Source of the DNA: Haladaptatus cibarius D43
GTDB lineage: Archaea; Halobacteriota; Halobacteria; Halobacteriales; Haladaptataceae
DNA length: 64,000 nt
Direction of reading: 5' to 3'
NCBI RefSeq assembly: GCF_000710615.1
Contig: NZ_JDTH01000010.1
Location: 1-64,000 of the forward strand
Shown: positions 19,910 through 24,287 of the stretch, piece after piece
How positions within the stretch are numbered: the stretch's first letter is position 1
Layout: the number at the start of each line of letters is the position of its first letter
The notes under the pieces: generated by a model
What the model saw: the letters and a program-made list of their open reading frames with translations, nothing else
Databases searched by the model: none
What the model was told of the DNA's origin: nothing
Made by a program: the position numbers and the translations under genes

Positions 19910-20017
19910 CAGACGAACGGGTGACAATTTTTGTTTGGTTCATAGAATTTCCAACAACAGCGACCTGCTTTCGACACGAATCGATGCAACTGACGTGCCT
20001 GGGGAAAGAACTAAGGT

Positions 20018-20039
20018 GAATTCATTTGAAATCCGGTGT
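20018..20039 (+). repeat. ORB-like box 5, flush with orc1 start
   Basis: TTCATTTGAAATCCGGTGT core whose last base is immediately followed by the ATG of orc1 (20040). Binding of the initiator here would cover its own translation or transcription start. Confidence 0.8.
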
Positions 20040-21419
20040 ATGGATTCAGGCACAGCACAGGTGAAAACACTCGGCGAGTATGCAGCCGAGCATGGGGCTG
20101 TTGCCCATTCTCGCTCTAAGGCTCGCGATGATCCTCTTTCCGTGCTTGACGAGGATGATCCTATTTTCGCCAACGAAGATTTACTTCGTATTGACCACAT
20201 CCCCGAGCATGACAAAATCGTCGGTCGAAACGACCAGATTGAAACCGTCGCTCGGCGACTCAAACCGACAATCACGGGGGGATCTGGAAAAGGAACGCTC
20301 CTTCTTGGCAAGTCTGGTTCCGGAAAAACGCTTGTCACCCGATATGTGAGTCGGGAGGTCGAAGAACGCGGTGCAGAGAATGACACCCGAATCGGTCGGG
20401 CAATTATCGACTGTGCCCAACGCCGCTCGGAAGTTCAGACTGTCATTCATCTCTCAAAAAGTCTGAACGATCCGCAGCAAACAGGAATTACGATTCCACA
20501 CTCGGGAATCGCGACGGGAGCATACTACGACCGTTTGTGGAGCGTCATCGACAAACTATACGATGCGATCATTGTCGTTCTCGACGAGATCGATCGGCTT
20601 GCACCGCCCGATGATGCCCGGAATATCCCACCAGAGGAAGCGGATGACAGCAAACTCCTCATGCAGCTTTCTCGAGCTGGAGAGGAGAATGACGTTGATG
20701 CTAGTATTACTGTCGTTGGCATCAGCAACGATCTCAAATACGGTGACCGATTGGACACCCGTGTCGAGAGTTCGTTTGCTCCCGATGAAATTGTTTTCCC
20801 TGCCTATGATGCAAATCAATTGGGAGATATTCTAGACCGACGTCGGGATGCCTATCACAAAGGCGTCCTTTCGGAGGACGTGATCCCGTTGTGTTCTGCA
20901 TTTTCTGCCCAGGAGCACGGGGATGCACGACGTGCACTTGATCTCTTTCGACTCGCTGGTGAAGTCGCTCGTGATGCCGATGGCGATCAGGTTTGTGAAG
21001 AACACGTTCGAGCTGCGAACGACGATGCTGAAGTCACACGCGTTCAAGATTTGATCAGGGGCTGTCCAACCCAGGCAAAGATCGCGATTGCTGCGCTTGC
21101 CGCCATGGATGAATTCACCAACCAATCCCATTTCAAGGCGACTGAGATGTACCAAGTCTACCGTGTATTTGCAGAGTCGATTGGCACGAACGTCCTTGGT
21201 CAAAAGCGTATCACCGATCAACTCCGTGAGTACGAAACGCTGAAAATCATCGACATGACCCGAACGAGTGATGGATACCGTGAAGGAACGTACCTAGAAC
21301 TCTCTCTGTTGGATGAAGCAAGCCTTCTGCTTCAGTCGATTGGACTTGATGATCAGTGTTCTCGAATCCCGATTGACACCAAAATGCGCCAGCAGATTGT
21401 TGGCCTCGTGGGACGCTAG
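20040..21419 (+). CDS. orc1/cdc6: Orc1/Cdc6 replication initiator
   Basis: A 459-aa AAA+ initiator that binds ORB elements and recruits the MCM helicase. Walker A is LLLGKSGSGKTLVTRY, Walker B is IVVLDEIDRL, sensor 1 is TVVGISNDLKY, and the C-terminal winged helix follows after about residue 360. I start it at ATG 20040 rather than at an upstream in-frame start, because the upstream frame runs through ORB boxes. It should initiate at the adjacent origin. The ORB box that ends at the start codon suggests autoregulation. Confidence 0.94.
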   Translation: MDSGTAQVKTLGEYAAEHGAVAHSRSKARDDPLSVLDEDDPIFANEDLLRIDHIPEHDKIVGRNDQIETVARRLKPTITGGSGKGTLLLGKSGSGKTLVTRYVSREVEERGAENDTRIGRAIIDCAQRRSEVQTVIHLSKSLNDPQQTGITIPHSGIATGAYYDRLWSVIDKLYDAIIVVLDEIDRLAPPDDARNIPPEEADDSKLLMQLSRAGEENDVDASITVVGISNDLKYGDRLDTRVESSFAPDEIVFPAYDANQLGDILDRRRDAYHKGVLSEDVIPLCSAFSAQEHGDARRALDLFRLAGEVARDADGDQVCEEHVRAANDDAEVTRVQDLIRGCPTQAKIAIAALAAMDEFTNQSHFKATEMYQVYRVFAESIGTNVLGQKRITDQLREYETLKIIDMTRTSDGYREGTYLELSLLDEASLLLQSIGLDDQCSRIPIDTKMRQQIVGLVGR

Positions 21420-22766: not shown

Positions 22767-22773
22767 TCTTAGA
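22767..22773. promoter_or_regulatory. TCTTAGA site upstream of parA
   Basis: A copy of the 7-bp motif (complement TCTAAGA) 23 bases before the parA start codon. The same motif is strongly repeated downstream at 23650-24287, so the partition protein may also bind here and regulate parA. Confidence 0.45.
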
Positions 22774-22796
22774 AGGCATAACTAGAGTAGAGAAGT

Positions 22797-23570
22797 ATGA
22801 CGACTAAGATAGCTGTGAGTAATCAAAAAGGCGGCGCTGGAAAAACGACGACGTCGATTAACGTCGCAGGAGCGCTCAACCAACTGGGTTACAACGTTCT
22901 CTTGATCGATTTGGATCCACAGGGACATGCAACCGAAGGGGTCGGCTTAGAAGATGAATACGATGCAGACGTCATAAGTTTCTATGATGTCTTACCTGAT
23001 TTAGACGTCATAGACGAAACGTCACAACTGATTTACGAGCATTCTGAGATGGATGTCATCCCGAGCCATCAGGATATGATTAACATCGAGGATGCGCTGG
23101 CTGGCGTACCAAATCGTGAAAACCGCCTTAATATGGCGCTTGACAACCTCGGCGAGTACGAGTATATCGTCGTCGACTGCCCACCAAACTTGGGCGTCTT
23201 GACCGACAATGCGCTTCTCGCATGCGAAAATGTACTCATCCCAGCACAGACGAAGACGACGAGCATCCGTGCGCTTGAATTGTTGTTCAAACAAATCAAC
23301 GCTCTCGAAGCCGCTTTTGGTACGGAGATTAAAGAAGTGGGACTTGTCGCGAACGAAGTTGGGACGGACAACGAAGCAGACGAGATGATGGAGTGGTTCG
23401 AAGAAGTGTTCGAGGAAAGGGCACCAGTGTGGGAGATCCGAAAGCGAGTTGCACTACAGCGCGCGTGGAACACAGGGGTCTCGATTTTTGAACACGAGGA
23501 AGACTGCGACATGGAAAAGGTCTATCTGCAAATCGCTGAGTCGCTGGAGGGAATCGATGGCGAAAGATAA
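22797..23570 (+). CDS. parA: ParA/Soj family partition ATPase
   Basis: A 257-aa P-loop ATPase that moves or positions replicons. The deviant Walker A motif NQKGGAGKTTTSINVAGAL (about 9-27) and Walker B-like VVDCPPNLGVLTDNAL (about 122) are intact, and LLIDLDPQGHATEGVGLEDE is the switch region. It starts at ATG 22797 and overlaps the next gene by 14 bases, as parA genes usually overlap parB or a centromere-binding partner. A TCTTAGA site lies upstream. Confidence 0.94.
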   Translation: MTTKIAVSNQKGGAGKTTTSINVAGALNQLGYNVLLIDLDPQGHATEGVGLEDEYDADVISFYDVLPDLDVIDETSQLIYEHSEMDVIPSHQDMINIEDALAGVPNRENRLNMALDNLGEYEYIVVDCPPNLGVLTDNALLACENVLIPAQTKTTSIRALELLFKQINALEAAFGTEIKEVGLVANEVGTDNEADEMMEWFEEVFEERAPVWEIRKRVALQRAWNTGVSIFEHEEDCDMEKVYLQIAESLEGIDGER

Positions 23571-23985
23571 GACGAAGAACCGTGATCCATTCGGAAGTCG
23601 ATATTCTCAGAACGAAGAACCATCCGAGACGGAAACTCAAGATACTCCGTCTAAGACAGGTGAATCGGACAATCTCTCTAAGACTGGAAAGACTGACACA
23701 CCGTCTAAGACTTCTAAGAAGGATAATCCAGAACAGACAGAAAAGACAGGGGAAAAAGAGAAGACGTCTGTGAAGAACCGGCCGTCAGTGCTGATGTATC
23801 TCCCCGAAGAGCAGCACACTGAACTGGATATCCGATTCGACGAAATCAACGCGAGGTACAAACGTGAACATGGTGAGTCACTTCAGAAGAATCGCGACTA
23901 TTACCCGATTCTCATTGAACTCGCGATGGAGAAGACCCAGGAGATGGACGAGGATGAATTGCTTAGTCGTCTGAATCAGTCCTAA
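23557..23985 (+). CDS. Putative centromere-binding partner of ParA, 142 aa
   Basis: Starts at ATG 23557 inside the end of parA. It has a disordered Ser/Lys/Thr-rich first half (DTPSKTGESDNLSKTGKTDT, PSKTSKKD) and a compact second half (NRPSVLMYLPEEQHTELDIR, FDEINARYKREHGESLQKNR, DYYPILIELAMEK) that could be a ribbon-helix-helix or similar DNA-binding domain. It is not a classical ParB with HTH. The SKT units are encoded by TCTAAGAC, so the DNA of the linker itself carries the repeated site found downstream. The partner role is inferred from position. Confidence 0.7.
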   Translation: MAKDKTKNRDPFGSRYSQNEEPSETETQDTPSKTGESDNLSKTGKTDTPSKTSKKDNPEQTEKTGEKEKTSVKNRPSVLMYLPEEQHTELDIRFDEINARYKREHGESLQKNRDYYPILIELAMEKTQEMDEDELLSRLNQS

Positions 23986-24287
23986 CTCTCTTAGAGATTA
24001 TCTACTTAAGAGGTCATAGATTATTCCACCTATTGCGATAGAGAAGCCCTTCAATATTTCTAAGATAGATATGACCGTATAGACTTATTAGATCAAGTCT
24101 AGTTAAGTGGAGGTAACCGAGAACAACGTTCTCTACACTGCACGGATGGATGTGTTCATAGCTGTCTAAGATGGATATGCTAAGAAAGCTATCTGAACTA
24201 CTGCCTCATATTTCCAGTGGGTGAGTATTGATCTCAACATAGAATCCCGAGAGTCGTCGCCATCATATCTATCTAAACTATCTAAGA
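23650..24287. repeat. TCTAAGA repeat cluster, candidate parS centromere
   Basis: The 7-mer TCTAAGA occurs at 23650-23656, 23677-23683, 23704-23710, 23713-23719, 24059-24065, 24165-24171 and 24281-24287, with an inverted copy TCTTAGA at 23989-23995 and a near copy GCTAAGA at 24179-24185. Four copies are inside the gene after parA, the others in the AT-rich non-coding stretch behind it. The second group shares TCTAAGAT followed by (A/G)GATATG twice. By chance less than one copy would be expected in such a length. Position next to parA suggests a partition site. Confidence 0.65.

What the first reader, a model, noticed from the sequence alone, without database searches (positions are those of the whole stretch)
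23650..24287. Dual-use DNA: TCTAAGA iterons inside a coding linker next to parA
Four of the repeats lie inside the gene after parA, where they encode the SKT units of a disordered linker; the others lie in non-coding DNA behind the gene, and one copy is upstream of parA. The protein sequence and the putative centromere would be under joint selection. I know of no described archaeal case of a centromere written into the coding sequence of its own partition partner.
Basis: partly seen in the sequence, partly recalled or inferred. Interest (0 to 1): 0.72.

Follow-up and report, generated by a model that had tools for sequence, protein, structure and literature searches.

The report
Partition iterons written inside coding DNA
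On this salt-loving archaeon's plasmid, and on many related plasmids, what look like the DNA docking sites of a plasmid-sharing-out protein run in 9-letter steps through that protein's own gene, so its floppy linker appears to be spelled by the docking sites; this is sequence evidence only, with no binding experiment yet.

Summary
Nine TCTAAGA copies lie in 1.5 kb (22767-24287): four in the 142-aa gene after parA (three SKT, one SKK), four downstream, one in the parA promoter. It is the most clustered heptamer of the 114-kb contig outside repeat arrays.

The phenomenon is family-wide. A haloarchaeal parA-plus-partner operon occurs in 194 of 392 genomes searched. Each branch has its own word, and the word tracks a short predicted DNA-contacting strand in the partner (PSVLMYL: TCTAAGA; NVNMYL: TCAAAGA; GRTIYI: GAAACGA). 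Copies keep a 9-bp step even in non-coding DNA. They exceed synonymous-shuffle expectation inside linkers, and in some branches on the opposite strand or inside parA. In the largest branch, core codons show 5.5% synonymous difference against 18.4% for other linker codons.

Best reading: 9-bp iterons bound by the partner, serving as parA operator and centromere. DNA-level selection shapes the linker; the SKT residues are not specially conserved. Linker copies are optional.

A partition site inside the partner's gene is already known (SCP2 parT; Sulfolobus SegB sites within segAB), so this is a new variant. Binding, the ribbon-helix-helix fold and centromere function are inferred.

The parts
22767..22818 (.). 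Upstream iteron array in the 9-bp register (TCTTAGAAG GCATAACTA GAGTAGAGA AGTATGACG ACTAAGATA ...), starting between a TATA-like TTTTATC and the parA start and running into parA; likely operator and part of the centromere
   Evidence: One exact copy and near copies at 9-bp steps. The first 44 of the 45 bases 22767-22811 are identical in three orthologues. TCTAAGA stands at -26 or -30 from the parA start in seven PSVLMYL-type loci, three of them near-identical.
22797..23570 (+). parA, 257-aa small Walker-type partition ATPase (KGGAGKT)
   Evidence: Pfam AAA_31 E 4e-44; nearest solved structures are ParA/Soj proteins
22972..23014 (.). Degenerate iteron array inside the parA coding sequence (TCATAAGTT TCTATGATG TCTTACCTG ATTTAGACG TCATAGACG)
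   Evidence: Ties for the highest 9-bp chain score of the whole contig; P = 0.002 against synonymous shuffles of parA; nearly unchanged in two orthologues. Tentative.
23557..23985 (+). Partner gene, 142 aa: disordered Ser/Thr/Lys linker plus a C-terminal helical domain (from about residue 71) with PSVLMYL strand; start overlaps the parA stop
   Evidence: Family profile in 194 of 392 genomes; AlphaFold C-domain mean pLDDT 91.8; no Pfam, NCBIfam or PDB match
23650..23719 (+). Coding iteron array: TCTAAGA at 23650, 23677, 23704, 23713 in one 9-bp register, encoding SKT, SKT, SKT, SKK
   Evidence: linker words beat the synonymous-recoding null for this locus, P = 0.003, the floor of 300 trials
23989..23995 (-). 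Downstream iteron, inverted orientation (TCTTAGA on the + strand)
   Evidence: kept in both orthologues
24050..24092 (.). Downstream non-coding iteron array around TCTAAGA at 24059
   Evidence: Chain score 25, above the maximum of 24 in 20 simulated contigs; exact core kept in both orthologues
24156..24185 (.). Downstream non-coding iterons around TCTAAGA at 24165, with a 6/7 copy at 24179 outside the 9-bp step
   Evidence: a copy is present nearby, inverted, in the more distant orthologue
24254..24287 (.). Downstream non-coding iteron array ending at TCTAAGA 24281
   Evidence: core kept in both orthologues

Best explanation
The repeats are recognition sites for the 142-aa partner protein: a 7-bp core (TCTWAGA) repeated in a 9-bp step. 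Dimers of the partner would line up along them through an exposed strand (PSVLMYL), as ribbon-helix-helix centromere-binding proteins do. The copy between TATA box and parA start would make the operon self-repressing; the whole set (promoter, part of parA, coding linker, downstream DNA) would form the centromere that ParA moves. Because 9 bp equals three codons, arrays fit into a disordered linker with little cost and come out as tripeptide-like repeats (SKT here; PSK, ETN or TSK elsewhere). Shown from sequence: clustering, 9-bp step, excess over synonymous coding, slower synonymous change in cores, and match of word to partner type across families. Inferred: direct binding by the partner, the ribbon-helix-helix fold, autoregulation, centromere function.
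For: Word tracks the partner's strand: TCTAAGA averages 2.9 copies outside plus 1.4 in the linker in PSVLMYL-type loci, and 0.0 in GRTIY (n = 44) and GTYxY (n = 28); without the three near-identical loci and with two later-fetched loci, P = 2e-9 against 115 other loci. Own-word excess against null, own branch: upstream 12/0.8, linker 15/3.2, downstream 14/1.2 for TCTAAGA; parA 38/12.3 and linker 30/6.3 for TCAAAGA; upstream 156/18 and linker 152/23 for GAAACGA; C-domain 11/1.7 for TCCAAAC; other branches at about null for nearly all of these. In non-coding DNA the partial matches peak at multiples of 9: at -9 and +9 or +9 and +18 in four branches. Linker recoding null: 14 of 48 clusters P < 0.05, binomial 6e-8. 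Synonymous difference core against other linker: 41/748 against 909/4950 (GRTIY), 19/122 against 419/1106 (NVNMY). In this locus downstream cores differ at 3/28 against 143/307 for other bases in the more distant orthologue, P = 1e-4. ParA is small and the partner is the only other gene of the operon.
Against: No binding or stability data. The strand-to-word match could reflect co-inheritance with any other gene of the locus. Ribbon-helix-helix not confirmed: no Pfam model above cut-off, no Foldseek or sequence match in the PDB. Two loci placed in the branch have no TCTAAGA (L004 PGVLMFL, L107 PHLMMYL), and a third near relative, L168 ALTMYL, has none either. The 9-bp step of exact copies upstream is clear only in the GRTIY branch (65/113), with few pairs in others. 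In the own branch core codons are only weakly slower (17/42 against 280/520). Loci within a branch are related, so counts are not fully independent; about two thirds of clusters are not individually significant. The SATIY branch shows its word but no 9-bp chain.
Confidence: 0.75

Rival explanations
1. The repeats are operators only: the partner is a transcriptional autorepressor, and the extra copies titrate it or are relics, with no centromere role.
For: A copy sits at about -30 from the parA start in most PSVLMYL loci; some loci have few copies beyond it (L139 has one).
Against: Most copies here lie inside or behind the genes, where an operator has no obvious role; downstream cores are kept in diverged DNA; the neighbour gene is a ParA ATPase, whose partners usually bind centromeres.
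Confidence: 0.12
2. Protein-first: the linker's tripeptide repeats are selected or expand for protein reasons, and the DNA similarity to outside copies follows from codon bias or tandem duplication.
For: A degenerate 27-bp tandem unit is visible here; low-complexity linkers expand easily; AAG and TCT are common in this gene.
Against: Same word in non-coding DNA and on the opposite strand of coding DNA; excess over synonymous shuffles; core codons slow at synonymous but not amino-acid positions.
Confidence: 0.08
3. The repeats bind another factor encoded on the plasmid, such as the Orc1/Cdc6 initiator, and mark a replication origin.
For: An orc1/cdc6 gene lies at 20007-21419, 1.4 kb upstream.
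Against: The word changes with the partner's strand across families; a separate repeat cluster lies at about 19.3-19.8 kb next to orc1.
Confidence: 0.05

Closest known systems
SegAB of Sulfolobales (PMC12284271, PMC5120986)
   Same: ParA-type ATPase gene overlapping a small archaeal partner with disordered N-terminus and DNA-binding C-domain; sites upstream of the operon and, in S. acidocaldarius, also within segAB
   Different: SegB sites are single 13-bp palindromes (TCTAGASTCTAGA) spread over the chromosome; no match within two mismatches in this window. Here 9-bp iterons cluster at the operon of a plasmid; no sequence match of the partner to any PDB chain
SCP2 ParA-ParT-parS, Streptomyces plasmid (PMC12260392)
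   Same: The partition site lies inside the coding sequence of its own binding protein
   Different: One 18-bp inverted repeat and a sliding clamp protein; here an array of short iterons and a small unrelated partner
pSM19035 delta/omega, Firmicutes plasmid (PMC4498918)
   Same: Small ParA with a small ribbon-helix-helix partner and arrays of short repeats that are both operator and centromere
   Different: Contiguous 7-bp heptads in promoter regions; here a 9-bp step, and copies also inside coding DNA
Par operon of haloviruses phiCh1 and phiH
   Same: Same operon: ParA plus a partner of this family; phiCh1 has the NVNMYL strand and TCAAAGA copies in linker, in parA and before parA
   Different: Word differs from TCTAAGA; the partner is annotated only as uncharacterised or hypothetical

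Membership tests
ParA plus small ribbon-helix-helix partner (type Ib-like) partition system | Small Walker-type ParA without an N-terminal DNA-binding domain | tested here: met
   257 aa, KGGAGKT near the start, AAA_31 E 4e-44 covering residues 3-175
ParA plus small ribbon-helix-helix partner (type Ib-like) partition system | Partner gene directly behind parA in one operon | tested here: met
   Partner start at 23557 overlaps the parA stop at 23570; a parA was recognised directly upstream of the partner in 129 of the 149 loci held
ParA plus small ribbon-helix-helix partner (type Ib-like) partition system | Partner has a ribbon-helix-helix DNA-binding fold | tested here: inconclusive
   Confident monomer model with an extended stretch before the helices, but no PDB or Pfam match; dimer not modelled
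ParA plus small ribbon-helix-helix partner (type Ib-like) partition system | Partner binds repeats and stabilises the plasmid | not testable with these tools
   Needs binding and stability assays
SegB family | Sequence homology to SegB | tested here: inconclusive
   No PDB chain matched by the family profile at E 10; presence of SegB in that library was not checked and SegB itself was not compared
SegB family | 13-bp palindromic site TCTAGASTCTAGA | tested here: not met
   No match within two mismatches in the window
pSM19035 omega-type heptad centromere | Contiguous 7-bp repeats | tested here: not met
   9-bp step; no chain of 20 or more at 7-bp spacing in 22.6-24.4 kb

The most novel reading that the evidence does not exclude
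A large, uncharacterised family of haloarchaeal plasmid and virus partition operons writes its centromere as 9-bp iteron arrays through its own coding sequences, so that the disordered linker of the centromere-binding protein is in part a translation of its own binding sites, with a strand-to-word recognition code that differs between co-resident plasmids.
Probability: 0.6. Interest if true: 0.85.

Novelty: new variant of a known kind. Interest (0 to 1): 0.72.

Why it matters
In the searches made here I found no described centromere for haloarchaeal plasmids. This gives candidate centromeres and a candidate recognition code for a widespread operon, testable by recoding without changing any protein. 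It also offers a case where a disordered protein region appears to owe its sequence to DNA-level selection, a caution for reading function from linker repeats.

Tried and rejected
Chance: rejected by clustering. Tandem duplication alone: cannot explain non-coding and opposite-strand copies. Conserved SKT residues: rejected, lost by amino-acid changes in orthologues. First recoding test used the linker's own codons in the null and was too conservative; redone without them. Whole-linker k-mer sharing gave a family-wide but diffuse excess. Folding the full-length protein gave low confidence; the C-domain alone was good but Foldseek found nothing. A first alignment used one locus in the wrong orientation and was redone. 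The viral-contig scan found no relative. Two paper searches for described haloarchaeal partition proteins and iterons gave no description of this family.

Full report
Observation. TCTAAGA occurs nine times between 22767 and 24287, and only twice elsewhere in the window. Window-wide the count is only weakly unusual (11 against 6.8 expected); the clustering is the strong part. On the 113,850-bp contig there are 14 copies, in the 3.93-Mb genome 89. After masking two repeat arrays it is the most clustered heptamer of the contig (P about 1.5e-17 before correction). Four copies lie in the 142-aa gene behind parA and encode SKT, SKT, SKT and SKK. The contig's codon use predicts TCTAAG for 5.8% of Ser-Lys pairs; here it is 4 of 4, although a degenerate 27-bp tandem unit makes the copies not fully independent.

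Anatomy. parA (22797-23570) is a small Walker ATPase. The partner (23557-23985) overlaps its end. The model of its C-terminal domain is confident (mean pLDDT 91.8, helices at about residues 84-105, 111-128 and 132-141) and starts with the stretch PSVLMYL. The topology would suit a ribbon-helix-helix dimer, but no Pfam, PDB sequence or Foldseek match supports the name, so it stays an inference. A 9-bp chain scan shows that the eight top-ranked stretches listed for the contig, and a ninth tied at score 22, lie between 22767 and 24289, two of them overlapping inside parA (22945-23016; core of the array 22972-23014); against synonymous shuffles of parA that array has P = 0.002.

Orthologues. Haladaptatus litoreus (94% protein identity) and a second relative (82%) keep the upstream copy and the downstream copies, one of them shifted and inverted in the second relative. 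In the second relative, downstream cores differ at 3/28 bases against 143/307 for the rest (P = 1e-4). In the linker the coding copies number 4, 3 and 2; cores show 0/13 synonymous changes against 25/102 in other linker codons (P = 0.03), and sites are lost by amino-acid changes (3/16 codons against 22/126). So the DNA, not the SKT residue pattern, appears conserved.

Family. A profile of the partner matched 194 of 392 genomes of the order. Of 149 loci held, 129 have a recognised parA, in 48 clusters. With synonymous recoding as null, 14 of 48 clusters have linker words that recur outside the linker at P < 0.05 (binomial 6e-8). Loci grouped by the residues of the strand carry different words: PSVLMYL TCTAAGA, NVNMYL TCAAAGA, GRTIYI GAAACGA, SATIY AATCAGT, GTYMYL TCCAAAC. 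Own-word excess over null stands in upstream DNA and in linkers; in NVNMYL also inside parA, in GTYMYL also in the C-domain, where the close-spaced copies are on the opposite strand. Other branches are at about null for nearly all of these words. Excluding the three near-identical loci and adding two loci fetched afterwards (L162, L164), TCTAAGA still separates its branch from 115 others (P = 2e-9). Two loci placed in the branch (L004, L107) have none.

The 9-bp step. Around non-coding copies, partial matches to the word peak at multiples of 9, with nothing comparable at intermediate offsets, in four branches. This is free of any reading frame. In linkers, spacings of exact copies are multiples of 9 in 10/10, 18/18 and 106/108 cases. 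Since 9 bp is three codons, such arrays come out as repeating amino-acid units.

DNA-level selection in coding copies. In the large GRTIY branch, among closest pairs, core codons differ synonymously at 41/748 against 909/4950 for other linker codons, while amino-acid change is alike (15.5% and 13.6%). NVNMYL: 19/122 against 419/1106. In the own branch the difference is small (17/42 against 280/520). Pairs share sequences, so no P value is given.

Function. The most economical mechanism is cooperative binding of the partner to the iterons, repression from the copy beside the TATA-like box, and a partition complex moved by ParA. No tool here can show binding. Rivals are an operator-only role, protein-first repeats, and another binding factor; each leaves some evidence unexplained.

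Known work. Sulfolobus SegB sites are mostly inside genes, including within segAB (PMC12284271); parS of SCP2 lies in the coding sequence of parT (PMC12260392); pSM19035 omega binds arrays of 7-bp repeats in promoters (PMC4498918). From my own knowledge, not checked here, a Bacillus subtilis parS lies in spo0J. The idea of a partition site in its partner's gene is therefore not new; arrays of 9-bp iterons that spell a linker, across a family with a changing word, are not described in the papers I found.

Noticed in passing
window about 8.8-10.8 kb and G000:C10 about 111.4-113.8 kb: Two CRISPR-like arrays of repeated words on the same contig; identity as CRISPR not checked.
   Followed up: no
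G000:C10 104.4-106 kb: A second clustered word, GACAGTC/GACTGTC, 9 of 18 copies within 1.6 kb.
   Followed up: no
window 19.3-19.8 kb: Clustered words CATTTGAA and GAATTCA just upstream of the orc1/cdc6 gene (20007-21419); possibly origin repeats.
   Followed up: no
L188 and L189 (phiCh1 NC_054954.1, phiH NC_052650.1): Both haloviruses carry a ParA gene with a partner of this family; phiCh1 has TCAAAGA copies in and around the operon.
   Followed up: partly
G000:C12:61742, C13:70991, C8:60048: Three further partner loci in the same genome, two of them read and of other branches; the de novo word scan of the C12 and C13 loci did not give TCTAAGA.
   Followed up: partly
L039, L111, L155 partner C-terminus: TCTTAGA at the end of the gene is made with the Leu codon TTA (ATC TTA GAC), an opposite-strand coding copy.
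   Followed up: partly
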